A stretch of DNA of 64,000 nt from Hyphomicrobiales bacterium. Lineage in GTDB: Bacteria > Pseudomonadota > Alphaproteobacteria > Rhizobiales > JAJFHR01. Position numbers and translations under genes: made by a program. The notes beneath the pieces are model-generated. The model made no database searches, was not told the DNA's origin, and was given only the letters and a program-made list of their open reading frames with translations. Below are positions 659-64,000 of the stretch, one piece after another. The stretch's first letter is position 1; every line of letters begins with the position of its first letter. The DNA lies in contig JAJFHS010000050.1 of NCBI GenBank assembly GCA_021775475.1, forward strand, positions 62,001-126,000, written 5' to 3'.

Positions 659-2584
659 TCAAATTTGTGCCACCTTCTCGCGCGCTTCTTCGTATGTCTG
701 CGACAGGGCCAGCCAGTCTTCTTCTTTTTGCTCTTTGCTTTTTACCAGAAGCCCGCGTGATTTGGATAGGTCTTCGGCTTTTTTCGGATCATTGGTATAA
801 AGTGAGCTGTCACCGAGTTTTATGTCCAGTGCTTCAATTTCTCCGGTAATTTTGGCCACATCATTTTCGGCCCTGGCCACCTTGTTTTTCAACGGTGCCA
901 GTTGTTCGCGCAACCTTGCGCGCTCCTTGCGGCGTTCGGCTTTGTCTTTGACCTTCGGCTGAAGTGCCGCGTCCCCCTCCTGGCCATCTTCCGGTCGTGC
1001 CCGTTTTTTCTTCACCGAACTCTCAGAGATGATTAAAGAGCGATATTCTTCAAGATCGCCATCGAAAGGTTTGACGGAACCCTTATCGACCAGCCACAGA
1101 CGATCAACACACGCTTCGAGCAGATGCTGGTCATGGCTGATCAGGATTAACGCACCGCCATAATCATTAAGCGCATGGATCAGGGCTTCGCGACTGTCCA
1201 CATCGAGATGATTGGTAGGTTCATCAAAAATCATCAGGTGCGGCGAGAAAAACCCGGTAATGGCAAACAACAATCGTGCTTTTTCACCGCCTGACAGGTT
1301 TTCTGCGAATGAATTCTGCAGATTAATACCAAACCCATAAGACCCCAGCCGGGCTCGAACAGAGGCTTCGCTGGCATCAGGCATAAACGCGCGCAAATGA
1401 TCATATGGCGTTTGGTTGGCCTGGAGTTCATCCAGCTGGTGCTGGGCAAAATAGCCGCTGATCAGCTTTTTTGATTTATAAACATCACCCACAAGCGGCT
1501 TCAGCTTGCCCATGAGCAATTTAGCCAGCGTCGATTTACCGTTGCCGTTGGCCCCCAGAAGACCGATACGGTCATCATGATCAACGCGCAGATTAAGATC
1601 GCTCAACACCGGCTTGCCAACCTCGTATCCCGCTTGGGCATGTTCCACCCGGATCAACGGACTGGCTAGCAGCCTTTCAGGTGTAGGGAAATTGAATGAG
1701 GCCACCCGGCCTTCAATCTGCGCTGCAATCGGCTTCATTCGCGCCAGAGCTTTCAGGCGTGATTGTGCCTGCCGCGCCTTGTTGGCCTGAGCCCGGAAAC
1801 GGTTGATAAAGCTTTCCATGTGGCGGCGCACATCATCCTGCTTTTTCTTCAGTTTCAGCTGCAACGCCTGACGTTCACGTAAAGTGCGTTCAAACTGATC
1901 ATAGCCGCCCTGATAGAGCGTCAGCTTGGTATCATCGAGGTGGACGATTTCGGTCACGCATTTATTCAGCAACTCGCGATCATGGCTGATGATGACAACA
2001 GTGTAGGGATAACGCTGGAGATATGATTCGAGCCAGATGGTGCCTTCAAGATCAAGATAGTTTGTCGGCTCATCCAGCAGCAGAATATCAGGTTCGGCAA
2101 ACAGAGCCGCCGCCAGTGCCACACGCATGCGCCAGCCACCGGAAAATTCGCTGCATGCCCTGAGTTGCGCTGCGTGATCAAAGCCTAGCCCGTGCAAGAT
2201 GGTAGCGGCACGTGAGGGTGCACCATGAGCGTTTATGTCCACCAGACGCAATTGTATATCCGAAATTCGTTCGGGATCGGTGGCAACCTCTGCTTCTGCC
2301 AGCAGGTTGATGCGTTCCTTGTCAGCTGCCAGAACCGTATCGAGCAAACTGGTGTCATCACCGGGTGCTTCCTGGGCAACGCCGCCAATAGAAGCATTCC
2401 TCGGCGCCGAGACAGAGCCGTCATCGGAGGCTAACTCGCCCTGGATCATGCGGAAAAGGGTAGTTTTGCCCGAGCCGTTGCGACCGACCAGCCCGACCTT
2501 GTGGCCGGGAGGAATAGCCACAGTCGCCTCATCAAAAAGCAGGCGCTCGCCCATTCTGAAAGTAAGTCCGTTAATATGAAGCAT
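659..2584 (-). CDS. ABC-F family ATPase (YheS/Uup-like)
   Basis: Soluble protein with two fused ABC nucleotide-binding domains and no membrane segments, the layout of the ABC-F family, whose members act on the ribosome as translation factors. The first domain has Walker A GLVGRNGSGKTT and signature FSGGWRMR; the second has GANGNGKST, LSGGEKAR and FDEPTNHLD. A basic linker lies between them at about residues 235-300. The C-terminus is a charged coiled coil (about 540-641), as in YheS and Uup. The ORF track starts at 2683, but the conserved N-terminus begins at MLHINGLTF, so I place the start at 2584, giving 641 residues, close to E. coli YheS. Divergent from ndk. Which ABC-F subgroup it belongs to cannot be fixed by eye. 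Confidence 0.9.
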   Translation of the reverse strand: MLHINGLTFRMGERLLFDEATVAIPPGHKVGLVGRNGSGKTTLFRMIQGELASDDGSVSAPRNASIGGVAQEAPGDDTSLLDTVLAADKERINLLAEAEVATDPERISDIQLRLVDINAHGAPSRAATILHGLGFDHAAQLRACSEFSGGWRMRVALAAALFAEPDILLLDEPTNYLDLEGTIWLESYLQRYPYTVVIISHDRELLNKCVTEIVHLDDTKLTLYQGGYDQFERTLRERQALQLKLKKKQDDVRRHMESFINRFRAQANKARQAQSRLKALARMKPIAAQIEGRVASFNFPTPERLLASPLIRVEHAQAGYEVGKPVLSDLNLRVDHDDRIGLLGANGNGKSTLAKLLMGKLKPLVGDVYKSKKLISGYFAQHQLDELQANQTPYDHLRAFMPDASEASVRARLGSYGFGINLQNSFAENLSGGEKARLLFAITGFFSPHLMIFDEPTNHLDVDSREALIHALNDYGGALILISHDQHLLEACVDRLWLVDKGSVKPFDGDLEEYRSLIISESSVKKKRARPEDGQEGDAALQPKVKDKAERRKERARLREQLAPLKNKVARAENDVAKITGEIEALDIKLGDSSLYTNDPKKAEDLSKSRGLLVKSKEQKEEDWLALSQTYEEAREKVAQI

Positions 2585-2672
2585 AGGGTAGTTGGGCCTG
2601 CAAATTACTGTGCTGTTCAAATTCTGCCGCTGTATATCATGAGTTGGCGGATGAGTAATAAGAAAATGTATC

Positions 2673-2700
2673 TTGAATGCCACTTAAGGGATGGTTATAA
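2673..2700 (+). promoter_or_regulatory. Candidate sigma70-type promoter for ndk
   Basis: TTGAAT at 2673-2678 and TTATAA at 2695-2700 are separated by 16 bp and lie about 60 bp upstream of the ndk ATG. Assigned by consensus match only. Confidence 0.4.
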
Positions 2701-2758
2701 GCCCTCGAAGCAATATTGATTGCCCCATTTTTTTATCACATCAGAAGGACGTTGTCGC

Positions 2759-3181
2759 ATGTCACTTGAGCGGACATTTTCCATTATCAAACCCGATGCC
2801 ACCCGCCGCAATCTCACCGGCAAGATTATTGCCAAATTTGAAGATGCAGGCTTGCGCGTTGTCGCTTCCAAGCGCATCCAGTTAAGCAAAGATCAGGCTG
2901 AAGGCTTCTATGGTGTTCACAAAGAACGGCCATTTTTTAATGATCTTGTCGCTTTCATGATTTCCGGCCCTGTCGTTGTTCAGGTGCTTGAAGGTGAAAA
3001 TGCCGTTGCCAAAAATCGCGAGGTTATGGGCGCAACCAACCCGGCAGATGCAGATGCAGGTACCATCCGCAAGGAATTTGCTGAATCAATTGAAGCAAAT
3101 TCAGTGCATGGATCCGATGCGCCTGAAACTGCAAAAGAAGAAATCGCCTTTTTCTTCAGCGATGATGAAATCGTCGGTTGA
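2759..3181 (+). CDS. ndk: Nucleoside diphosphate kinase
   Basis: Transfers the gamma phosphate between NTPs and NDPs through a phosphohistidine, balancing nucleotide pools in the cytoplasm. The 140-residue product starting [13 protein letters not shown] is full family length. The catalytic histidine lies in the conserved NSVHGSDA motif near residue 117, and the N-terminal KPDATRRN signature is intact. The ORF track extends 13 residues upstream, but the family N-terminus and an AGAAGGA ribosome-binding sequence fix the ATG at 2759. Single gene, followed 32 bp later by the molybdopterin oxidoreductase on the same strand. Confidence 0.98.
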
Positions 3182-3213
3182 TTTTGTGAAGTATAGGGTG
3201 TGGTATCACGCCT

Positions 3214-60098: not shown

Positions 60099-60185
60099 GC
60101 GGGCGTGGTGGAATGGTAGACACACAGGACTTAAAATCCTGAGGACTTAAAGTCCGTGCGAGTTCGACTCTCGCCGCCCGCACCA
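60099..60185 (+). tRNA. tRNA-Leu (UAA)
   Basis: An 87-nt gene with acceptor GCGGGCG/CGCCCGC, anticodon stem CAGGA/TCCTG with loop CTTAAAA (anticodon TAA), long variable arm GGACTTAAAGTCC, T-arm GCGAG-TTCGACT-CTCGC, discriminator A and encoded CCA. A class II tRNA reading UUA. It precedes the interrupted gene at 60285-61643. Confidence 0.98.
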
Positions 60186-60284
60186 ATTGAACAGTTGTAA
60201 CTTTTTCGACCCTTGATTTTTCTATAGTTTCTTGGTTTGCTTGTTTCCTGCCAGCAAGAATTATAGCATCGGGAGGGGTTTTAA

Positions 60285-61643
60285 GTGTCTGAGAATTTAC
60301 CCGCATATTTGACACAAGGTGAAGTTGCGCGCTTGTTTCCTGTGCTGTCGACAACATCAAAAGAAGGTCGCACCACCTCAATTGTGTTGGCATGTTTATC
60401 TAAAATAGAAGAATTTGGCAAAAGCCTTTTGGGTACCGTTGGGCAGCGTGTCGGGAAATTATCACGGATTGAAACTTACACGGAAGTTGGATTTCAAAAA
60501 CAACCAAACGAACACAAAGACAGGCCCGATGGCCTCATTGTTTTAAAAGTCGGTTCGCGTGAATGGCGCGCATTGGTTGAGGCAAAAGTCGGCAACAATG
60601 ATCTGGATGCTGGTCAGATCGAAAGATACCGCGCCTTAGCTAAAGATAATGGCATTGATTGCGTCATAACGATTTCAAATCAGTTTGCAACAAGTCCAGC
60701 CGACCATCCTATGGAAGCTGTACGAAAAAGCCGTTCAAAAATCCCAGTTTACCATTGGTCTTGGATGCATGTTCTTACGTCAGCTCATTTGTTGATAAGC
60801 CAGGATGGTGTTGCCGATGGAGACCAGCTTGTTCTTTTGAATGAGCTGCGCCGCTTTTTGGGTCATGAAAGCGCTGGAGTAAAAGGCTTCGACCGCATGC
60901 CCAAGGAGTGGGCGGACCTGAATAGGTTAGTATCAAGTGGCGGTGTTATACCTACCAAATCCAAAGAGGCTGCAACCGTTCTTCAGGCATGGCATCAAGA
61001 AACGCGTGATTTATCGCTTATCTTAAGTCGATTGACTAAAACAAATGTATCGGAGAAATTACCACGCAAACACGCAAAAGATGCTGTCCAACGTCAGAAA
61101 GATGAAATGGATAATTTGCGTGATGCTCATCAACTTTGATGCACACTGGATGTAAAAGATGCAGCGTCACCCGTTGAAGTCGTGGCAGACATGAACCGCC
61201 GTTGTGTCGACGTTGGAATGAGTTTGCGCGCACCCGAAGACAAGAAAACCACGAAGGCCCGTGTGAATTGGCTTCTAAGGCAGATTAAAACTGAGGCAAT
61301 TGAAGATTTGTATGTCCGGTTGCTTTGGCCGGGAACGAGTGAACCCACTCAATTCTTGGTGTCTGATTTACGGGAGAATATTGAAATTTGCATTGCGGAA
61401 AAAAAACATCTGACCACACATGGATTTCACGTCTTTAAGTCCAAGCGGATCGGCGCACGATTTACACAACAAGTAAATTTTATAGCGGATTTGGAAAAAC
61501 ATGTGCCTGAATTTTATCATACAATTGGTTCAAATCTTGATGCATGGAAAAGGAGTCCTCCAAAAATGATGTCCGAAAAAATAGCAGCTGATGATGTTTC
61601 ACCAGAAGCTATTTTTGATGAAGCGGAGGGATTTGAGCCCTAG
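60285..61643 (+). pseudogene. PD-(D/E)XK-like protein gene interrupted by an in-frame TGA
   Basis: The ORF track shows two ORFs, 60285-61139 and 61182-61643. Both are in the same reading frame and are separated only by one TGA at 61137-61139; the codons after it (C-T-L-D-V-K-D-A-A-S) join smoothly to the second ORF. As one reading it is about 452 residues. The N-terminal part has RPDGLIVLKVGSREWRALVEAKVGNND, fitting the D...ExK core of the PD-(D/E)XK fold; a basic, helical C-terminal half follows. GTG start with GGGAGGGG upstream. A CGA to TGA change would explain the stop (inference). Function unknown. If no read-through occurs, the upstream piece ends at about 284 residues. Confidence 0.75.
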
Positions 61644-61772
61644 CCGAGTGAGTGGATTTAACCCCATCAAATGAGCCAGTAATTACGTCTTTTGGTATAA
61701 CATGTGATAGGATGGAAATTCGCAGCTTTTAGCAAAATTTCATTTTTAAATACGGTTTTGGGCAATTGATTG

Positions 61773-63467
61773 ATGCAGTATATTTTTTCGTACCTTTTAG
61801 CACTCCGAAGTCTGGTTAGCGCCTTGACGCTGATACTCCTGATATCAGCAAGTGCAAACGCGCAAACCTTGACCGCTGAGGAGCAGGCGGCGACAGAGCA
61901 AAAGGCCAAAGTGATCGAGGCTTCAATCAAAGCCATCGGCAATATTCTTGATGCTCAAAAAGCCAAACAGAAAATCATCAAAGACCTGCGAAGGGCCATC
62001 GATAAGGCGCAGACAGATGTCGACAAAAAACAGATTGGTGAAGAGTTAAAAGTTCAAAATGCAGAATTGGCGCAGCTGCGCGATCAGGTGATTATCCTTG
62101 CCACCGGTGTTTCACAAACCGATATTGATCCGGTCAATGAGGGCTTTAATCTGCAAAAAGAACTGGAATTGCTGATACGGCCTTTTGTCTGGATTTTAAA
62201 ATCAGCGACCGAGAATGCCCGTCAGATCGAATATCTTAAACGCACGCTGCTGGCCGCCACCAAACAGCAACAAACTGCAGCTGACGCAATCGAGCGAATT
62301 CAACTGATCATTGACAAAGTCCCTAAAGATAAGCGCGTCGCCAAACAACTGCATACAATTCTTCAAGACTGGAAGGACCGTCAACTTACAGCAAAGGACA
62401 AGGCAACGACAGCTGAGCAGCAATTGCAGTCGCGATTGTCAAAACGCGTTGATGCGGGCGATACCACCAAGCAGGCGTTTACGTCGTTTTTCAACGACCG
62501 CGGCCGCAATCTGATTTATGGAATTTTGGGGTTTTCGGCCGTTCTGGTTGTCATGCGCCTGCTGCGCCGAATTATTCTGTCTTCAATCGGTGCGCCCAGA
62601 AACAGAACCTTCCCGGTGCGAGTGGGTGCATTGATTTTTGACCTTGCCACAGCCGCCACAGCCTTTGGCACCACCATTGCCATCTTCAATAGTTACAATG
62701 ACTGGCTCTTGACCGGTTTTATGTTGCTGCTTTTTATAGCGATTGGCTGGATCACTCTCAAATCACTTCCAAACCTGCTTGAGCAGGTAACCTTGTTGCT
62801 CAATCTTGGTGCCGTGCAGGAAGGTGAGCGCCTGGTGATCAATGGCGTTCCCTGGCGCGTTGCCAAGCTTGATCTTTATACGTCCCTTGTTAATCCGTCG
62901 CTCAGAGGCGGCTCGTTCACGGTTCCGGTACGTGAATTAAAAGGCCAGCACTCGCGCTTAGTTGATGACAAGGAAAAATGGTTTCCGTCCGAAGAAGGCG
63001 ACTGGGTCGTTCTCGATAACGGCCTGTGGGCAGAAGTTGTTTTGCAAAGCCCCGAAGCTGTTCAATTGCGCGAAGAAGGCGGCGCCATTTTTTATTATAC
63101 CGTTCAAAGTTTCCTTGATCAAAATCCCAAGAACGTCTCCACCGATTATCGCGTCACCATCGAGTTCGGCATTGATTATTCCCATCAGGCCATTGCTGCT
63201 GACGAGATACCAAAAATCCTGCGCGAGTATATCGAATGTGAAATTTGTAAAATGGTTGATCCTGAAAAGATTCTGGGGGTCTATGTGACCCTGTTTCGTG
63301 CCGGTGCGTCTTCACTTGATTATGAAATTGAAGTGGATGTGGGTGAGGGTATGGGCCATCTTTATGAGCCCATTGAACATGGCCTTGCCCGCTTTGCAGT
63401 GCAATGCTGCACAAAAAACGGCTGGACCATCCCGTTCCCGCAATTGACGCTGCATCGGGGTGACTAG
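61773..63467 (+). CDS. MscS-like mechanosensitive channel family protein
   Basis: 564 residues from the ATG at 61773 (the track begins at an overlapping TTG). Signal peptide (about 1-30, ASANAQTLT), a long charged coiled-coil periplasmic region (about 35-235), then about three membrane segments (LIYGILGFSAVLVVMRLL; a second near 285; WLLTGFMLLLFIAIGWITL). The C-terminal beta domain (about 345-410, VQEGERLVINGVPWRVAKLD) is MscS-like but diverged at the usual LVTIPNS loop. A terminal alpha/beta domain follows. It likely gates solute efflux on hypo-osmotic shock. Confidence 0.82.
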   Translation: MQYIFSYLLALRSLVSALTLILLISASANAQTLTAEEQAATEQKAKVIEASIKAIGNILDAQKAKQKIIKDLRRAIDKAQTDVDKKQIGEELKVQNAELAQLRDQVIILATGVSQTDIDPVNEGFNLQKELELLIRPFVWILKSATENARQIEYLKRTLLAATKQQQTAADAIERIQLIIDKVPKDKRVAKQLHTILQDWKDRQLTAKDKATTAEQQLQSRLSKRVDAGDTTKQAFTSFFNDRGRNLIYGILGFSAVLVVMRLLRRIILSSIGAPRNRTFPVRVGALIFDLATAATAFGTTIAIFNSYNDWLLTGFMLLLFIAIGWITLKSLPNLLEQVTLLLNLGAVQEGERLVINGVPWRVAKLDLYTSLVNPSLRGGSFTVPVRELKGQHSRLVDDKEKWFPSEEGDWVVLDNGLWAEVVLQSPEAVQLREEGGAIFYYTVQSFLDQNPKNVSTDYRVTIEFGIDYSHQAIAADEIPKILREYIECEICKMVDPEKILGVYVTLFRAGASSLDYEIEVDVGEGMGHLYEPIEHGLARFAVQCCTKNGWTIPFPQLTLHRGD

Positions 63468-63497: not shown

Positions 63498-63628
63498 CCT
63501 TTTTCATCATCCTCGGGCTTGACCCGGGGATCCATTCCTCAGTTCCCTCGACTAAAACGCAGTATCGTTGTTTTCGACAAGTTCAACGCTATGGATCCTC
63601 GGGTCAAGCCCGAGGATGATGAAAAAGG
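63498..63628. repeat. Palindromic repeat copy E
   Basis: The longest copy. Arms of about 38 nt (starting CCTTTTTCATCATCCTCGGG) pair with one mismatch around a centre of about 55 nt containing AGTATCGTTGTTTTCGAC and CAACGCTATGGATCC. Lies between the convergent MscS-like and SRPBCC genes. Confidence 0.88.
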
Positions 63629-63710: not shown

Positions 63711-64000
63711 TTAATCCGCCTGCAACTCGGCAAAAATCTCATCCATAACAGCGTAACCACCTTCCCAGCCTTTGCCCATATTGTTAACGGCATCCGTGAA
63801 GCAGGTGATTTCGGCGTCGGTGGCATCCAGCGGTTCCCATACCAGTCTTACTTTGGTTTTGCTGCCTTCATCCTCGAATGTCACAGTCGTCAATAAGATG
63901 CGCGGCCAATCGGGCATCATTGGGTTCGATGTGGTGTTCCAGTCTGAATCGGTTGTGGAGTGGTGGTGCCAGACCAGGCGTTTCAGTGGTGTTACTTCTG
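63711..64000 (-). CDS. SRPBCC/AHSA1 family protein (5' end outside window)
   Basis: The track lists only 63711-63920, but the minus-strand frame stays open to the window edge, giving LVWHHHSTTDSDWNTTSNP before the listed Met. With RILLTTVTFEDEG and the C-terminal helix AVNNMGKGWEGGYAVMDEIF, it matches the C-terminal half of the AHSA1 (activator of Hsp90 ATPase-like) SRPBCC fold, a hydrophobic ligand-binding cavity domain. About 96 residues are seen of roughly 150. Confidence 0.85.
   Translation of the reverse strand, partial: EVTPLKRLVWHHHSTTDSDWNTTSNPMMPDWPRILLTTVTFEDEGSKTKVRLVWEPLDATDAEITCFTDAVNNMGKGWEGGYAVMDEIFAELQAD

What the first reader, a model, noticed from the sequence alone, without database searches (positions are those of the whole stretch)
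60285..61643. Long nuclease-like gene split only by one in-frame TGA, beside tRNA-Leu
The two track ORFs share a frame and are joined by a single stop; codons after it give a continuous, well-ordered sequence. The ribosome-binding site is strong. The tRNA-adjacent position and lack of similarity to neighbours suggest an acquired cargo gene. A recent C to T change would explain TGA.
Basis: partly seen in the sequence, partly recalled or inferred. Interest (0 to 1): 0.6.

Follow-up and report, generated by a model that had tools for sequence, protein, structure and literature searches.

The report
Nonsense-interrupted PD-(D/E)XK nuclease gene beside tRNA-Leu
A mobile DNA-cutting-enzyme gene, probably an anti-virus defence gene that travels with tRNA genes, is interrupted here by one stop codon, as about one in nine of its relatives also is by other kinds of damage; the stop itself is ordinary, but the gene family has no name in the libraries searched.

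Summary
Window 60285-61643 is one 452-codon frame with a single TGA at codon 285 (61137-61139). Every intact relative examined is one continuous ~440-530-codon gene. None stops at residue 284, and no separate second gene was found. The residue at that position varies (Gln, Ser, Lys, Arg, Thr, Leu...), and the genome has no SelB above the curated cut-off, so the TGA is a nonsense mutation (or sequencing error), not recoding. Conserved residues survive on both sides of it, so the break is recent, or the sequence is wrong.

The family is an unnamed PD-(D/E)XK nuclease with a helical middle domain and a C-terminal alpha/beta domain; the TGA falls at the first strand of that last domain. In Streptomyces and Rhodococcus plasmids it is fused behind a TerD domain. 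Neighbours elsewhere include a complete Zorya system, PDC-S37/Hhe, an AriA-like ATPase gene and TerY-P genes, which suggests anti-phage defence. Nine of about 73 copies lie within 500 bp of a tRNA 3' end (about ten times expectation); one is a 1.9-kb single-gene island between direct repeats. At least eight copies are broken, by different lesions. In the sister species the same tRNA-Leu slot holds an adenylate cyclase instead.

The parts
60099..60185 (+). tRNA-Leu (anticodon TAA); its 3' end marks the left edge of the variable slot
   Evidence: ARAGORN; collinearity with the sister genome G002 (88% DNA identity) ends at this 3' end
60271..60278 (+). GGGAGGGG, purine-rich ribosome-binding-site-like sequence before the GTG start
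   Evidence: sequence; no expression test
60285..61643 (+). whole interrupted gene, 452 codons plus stop, one in-frame TGA
60285..60800 (+). PD-(D/E)XK nuclease domain (about residues 1-172; E67, D82, E99-x-K101, Q111)
   Evidence: invariant columns in 24 homologues; AlphaFold model; Foldseek to PaqCI, BamHI and EcoT38I
60819..61127 (+). helical middle domain (about residues 179-281)
   Evidence: AlphaFold model
61137..61139 (+). in-frame TGA, codon 285, at the first strand of the C-terminal domain
61140..61643 (+). open frame after the stop: C-terminal alpha/beta domain (residues 283-413) and tail
   Evidence: never found as a separate intact gene
61770..63467 (+). neighbouring 565-aa gene in the same slot, membrane-protein-like by its hydrophobic stretches; absent from both genus relatives
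   Evidence: no Pfam family
63711..63920 (-). C-terminal part of a conserved gene (ending MGKGWEGGYAVMDEIFAELQAD) at which collinearity with the sister genome resumes: right edge of the variable slot

Best explanation
This is a horizontally acquired single-gene nuclease, most likely an anti-phage defence effector, recently inactivated by a nonsense mutation. The intact protein (about 450-470 aa) has an N-terminal PD-(D/E)XK nuclease domain, a helical middle domain and a C-terminal alpha/beta domain that probably senses or positions the target; TerD-fused relatives add a further sensing module. Shown: one continuous gene family, preserved catalytic residues, a stop at the C-domain boundary, a variable residue at the stop, no Sec machinery, tRNA-end placement, defence neighbours in several genomes, and repeated independent breakage. 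Inferred: DNA cleavage, defence function, and that loss of the C-terminal domain abolishes it. The recurrent breakage fits a gene that is costly when phages are absent and is readily lost and regained.
For: Intact relatives are single ORFs of 438-529 codons (further ones). The residue at codon 285 is Q, S, K, R, T, L, I, E, C, Y, H or A in relatives. Conserved columns judged without this protein: 1 of 91 changed before the stop, 2 of 33 after it. No separate C-terminal gene in 100 genomes; all seven hits lie in one longer frame, apart from the already broken G072 copy. SelB: best 99 bits against a cut-off of 242. AlphaFold pLDDT 86; TGA at strand 283-290. Foldseek matches the nuclease domain to PaqCI and BamHI, probability near 1.0. 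Broken relatives: L033, L019, L046, L048, L049, G456 (IS3-like insertion), G818 (remnant). tRNA 3' ends within 500 bp of 9 copies; direct repeats and an integrase. Zorya, PDC-S37/Hhe, AriA-like and TerY-P neighbours. TerD fusion.
Against: No closer relative than about 70% identity exists in the data, so recency rests on preserved conserved columns only. A sequencing or assembly error is not excluded. No biochemical or phage data exist for the family here. Most Ruegeria copies have no obvious defence neighbours. The two changes at conserved positions after the stop, and a C/N identity ratio at the low end (0.855; others 0.83-0.94), allow slight relaxation of the C-terminal part.
Confidence: 0.7

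Rival explanations
1. The TGA is a sequencing, assembly or consensus error and the gene is intact.
For: Nothing is wrong with the frame on either side; the genome is a 76-contig draft; a single codon is all that interrupts the frame.
Against: Other members are broken by clear-cut lesions, so a real break has a substantial prior. No other sign of frame damage in this gene.
Confidence: 0.17
2. Programmed read-through or selenocysteine makes some full-length protein, and the stop acts as a regulator.
For: The downstream frame is preserved and the stop sits at a domain boundary.
Against: No relative has a stop at this codon and the column is not conserved. No SelB above the cut-off. No stable RNA structure after the stop (z = +1.2). 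TGA is the commonest normal stop of the window's long ORFs (19 of 39).
Confidence: 0.04
3. The 284-aa truncated protein is itself functional as a shorter nuclease (nuclease plus helical domain).
For: The stop falls between two domains, so both upstream domains could fold whole; catalytic residues are intact.
Against: No relative is truncated there and otherwise intact. The C-terminal domain is kept even in TerD-fused relatives at 26-29% identity.
Confidence: 0.08
4. Two separate genes.
For: A GTG start exists at 61182.
Against: Relatives are fused without exception apart from broken copies. The GTG lies inside the C-terminal domain, after its first strand, with no good ribosome-binding site.
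Confidence: 0.01

Closest known systems
PD-(D/E)XK restriction-type nucleases (PaqCI, BamHI, EcoT38I)
   Same: Same catalytic core by fold search and by E...D...E-x-K residues
   Different: No significant sequence match; the helical and C-terminal domains have no clear match in the PDB; no accompanying methyltransferase in most loci
Ter-dependent stress/defence systems (TerD, TerY-P triad; Anantharaman et al. 2012, as cited in PMC11090510)
   Same: Actinobacterial relatives are TerD fusions; two relatives lie near a TerY-like VWA gene, one of them with the adjoining PP2C and kinase/zinc-ribbon genes
   Different: Most alphaproteobacterial copies, this one included, are solitary and carry no TerD domain
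tRNA-associated integrative islands and defence cargo
   Same: Placement at tRNA 3' ends, direct repeats, and an integrase in one relative
   Different: No integrase and no repeat of the tRNA end are left at this locus

Membership tests
PD-(D/E)XK nuclease superfamily | Core fold | tested here: met
   AlphaFold pLDDT 86; Foldseek to PaqCI, BamHI and BFVD PD-(D/E)XK proteins at probability near 1.0, though no E-value below 0.001
PD-(D/E)XK nuclease superfamily | Catalytic D...(D/E)xK motif | tested here: met
   E67, D82, E99, K101 invariant in 24 homologues including this one
PD-(D/E)XK nuclease superfamily | Curated Pfam profile above cut-off | tested here: not met
   Mrr_cat 12.4 bits against 21; VRR_NUC and PDDEXK_4 only weak; placed at superfamily level by fold and motif, not in any Pfam family
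PD-(D/E)XK nuclease superfamily | Nuclease activity | not testable with these tools
   needs biochemistry
Known anti-phage defence system (PADLOC) | Match to a PADLOC model | tested here: not met
   best E = 0.004 for single members; no consistent family
Known anti-phage defence system (PADLOC) | Location among defence genes | tested here: inconclusive
   Met in relatives: Zorya ZorABCD directly downstream in L044; PDC-S37/Hhe in L038; AriA-like ATPase in L047; not met at this locus itself
TerD-linked (Ter) systems | TerD domain in the protein or operon | tested here: not met
   absent here; present as an N-terminal fusion in Streptomyces and Rhodococcus relatives at 26-29% identity
Selenoprotein | Conserved Cys/Sec at the TGA and SelB in the genome | tested here: not met
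Integrative element at a tRNA | Direct repeat of the tRNA 3' end flanking the insert | tested here: not met
   none of 11 nt or more found here; present in relatives L013 (16 bp), L040 (33 bp) and L034 (14 bp)

The most novel reading that the evidence does not exclude
The intact family is an undescribed stand-alone anti-phage nuclease, related to the Ter stress systems, that moves as a minimal one-gene island between tRNA 3' ends and is repeatedly switched off by mutation; this window holds a freshly dead copy.
Probability: 0.45. Interest if true: 0.5.

Novelty: new member of a known kind. Interest (0 to 1): 0.3.

Why it matters
A single nonsense codon is common. The useful part is the family behind it: a conserved PD-(D/E)XK protein with no Pfam, NCBIfam or PADLOC family, present in roughly 3-6% of the genomes sampled from its phylum, class and order, fused to TerD in actinobacteria and found next to known defence systems. 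It is a cheap candidate for a phage-challenge test, and its recurrent breakage makes it a case for studying the cost of carrying defence genes.

Tried and rejected
Selenocysteine and alternative code: rejected. A downstream RNA structure for read-through: none. Direct repeats of the tRNA-Leu 3' end around this insert: none. Phage records: no match. Viral contigs: only two relatives, so it is not a typical phage gene. Pfam, NCBIfam and PADLOC: no family. PDB by sequence: no match. A conserved partner gene: none across genera, only a divergent 220-aa gene of no Pfam or PADLOC family upstream in seven loci, mostly Ruegeria. The 2012 Ter paper is not held, so whether it already lists this TerD-nuclease fusion could not be checked.

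Full report
What is there. Window 60285-61643 is a 452-codon frame with one TGA, at codon 285 (61137-61139). The start is GTG, preceded by GGGAGGGG. tRNA-Leu(TAA) ends 99 bp upstream on the same strand.

One gene, not two. In 298 genomes of the order, 18 have a match; those that cover most of the protein are single frames of 438-529 codons, apart from the window's own and one with an internal TAA. A genome-collection scan found 26 more loci, up to 70% identical. A search with the C-terminal part alone in 100 genomes found seven hits, all within a longer frame; one of these (G072) is the copy already broken by an upstream TAA.

The stop is a mutation or an error, not recoding. At codon 285 relatives have Gln (14), Ser (7), Lys (4), Arg (4), Thr, Leu, Ile, Glu, Cys, Tyr, His or Ala, and never a stop. 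The genome has no SelB over the cut-off (99 against 242 bits). TGA ends 19 of 39 long ORFs in the window. RNA after the stop folds no better than shuffles. Because the column is so variable, the ancestral codon, and hence a C-to-T change, cannot be read from the alignment.

How recent. Taking columns that are at least 90% conserved in the other 23 proteins, this one departs at 1 of 91 before the stop and 2 of 33 after it, and at none of the invariant ones. In-frame codon scores are the same on both sides. No second lesion is present. The break is therefore recent, or a sequence error; reads would decide. No relative nearer than about 70% was found, and the two genus relatives lack the gene, so it cannot be dated better.

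What the protein is. The AlphaFold model (pLDDT 86) has an N-terminal nuclease domain (about 1-172), a helical domain (about 179-281) and a C-terminal alpha/beta domain (283-413). Foldseek matches the first to PaqCI, BamHI and EcoT38I with probability near 1 but no E-value below 0.001. E67, D82, E99-x-K101 are invariant. No Pfam, NCBIfam or PADLOC family claims it. The TGA lies at the first strand of the C-terminal domain, so the 284-residue product would keep the nuclease and helical domains and lose the last domain. In Streptomyces and Rhodococcus plasmids the whole family is fused behind a TerD domain (E = 2e-43 and 9e-48 in the two checked).

Where it lives. In the sister genome G002 the DNA is collinear (88%) up to the 3' end of tRNA-Leu. 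It then differs for 3.5 kb here (nuclease plus a 565-aa gene) against 1.6 kb there (an adenylate cyclase), and becomes collinear again at window 63708. Across about 73 loci, nine copies lie within 500 bp of a tRNA 3' end that faces them (window Leu; L031 His; L034 Ser; L041 Tyr; L048 Leu; L026 Ala; L013 Ser; L099 Leu; L111 Ser). The expectation is about one (Poisson about 1e-6 to 1e-8 computed for 62 loci; relatedness among loci ignored). L013 is a 1.9-kb island holding little but this gene between 16-bp repeats. L040 carries it in a 6.5-kb island at tRNA-Tyr, between 33-bp repeats, with a tyrosine recombinase. No repeat of 11 nt or more remains at the window's own locus.

Defence setting. In L044 the gene is followed directly by a complete ZorABCD set. 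In L038 it lies beside a PDC-S37/Hhe protein and in L047 near an AriA-like ATPase. L028 and L042 have a TerY-like VWA gene nearby, and L042 also the PP2C and kinase/zinc-ribbon genes of a TerY-P triad. [quoted passage not shown] Defence is thus the best-supported function, but it is inferred.

Recurrent breakage. Besides the window: L033 has two in-frame stops, L019 one TAA, L046 a frameshifting small duplication, L048 a transposase-bearing insertion after residue 172, L049 a truncation near residue 180, G456 a 1.2-kb IS3-like insertion at residue 96, and G818 is a 60-residue remnant with a TGA. That makes eight of about 73 copies, each damaged differently. This supports a real break here, and a gene that is often dispensable or costly. 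The count is a lower bound, because copies cut by contig ends were left out.

Verdict. As a finding it is an ordinary nonsense-broken accessory gene; the family is a reasonable untested candidate for a stand-alone defence nuclease.

Noticed in passing
window 63498-63628: A 38-nt inverted repeat (97% complementary, 55-nt loop, ATCCTCGGGTCAAGCCCGAGGAT) between the 565-aa gene and the conserved gene at the right edge of the slot; looks like a repeated intergenic element or terminator.
   Followed up: no
window 61770-63467: 565-aa gene, membrane-protein-like, no Pfam match, found in 1 of 20 relatives (40% identity) and absent from both genus relatives; shares the variable slot with the nuclease.
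   Followed up: partly
L013 (reverse complement, about 1240-3190): A minimal island holding little but this nuclease gene between two copies of CCACCCCATCCGCCAT, one of them the tRNA-Ser 3' end, with no integrase inside.
   Followed up: partly
L044 326-8691: The nuclease gene overlaps the start of ZorA of a complete Zorya type I set by one base, as if in one operon.
   Followed up: partly
L025 7171-7842 and six further loci, mostly Ruegeria: A divergent gene of about 223 aa with no Pfam or PADLOC family lies just upstream of the nuclease in seven loci; possible partner or regulator.
   Followed up: partly
L024 (record titled Chloroflexi): A contig labelled Chloroflexi carries a copy 70% identical to this alphaproteobacterial gene and much like the Ruegeria copies; suggests a contaminated bin.
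   Followed up: no
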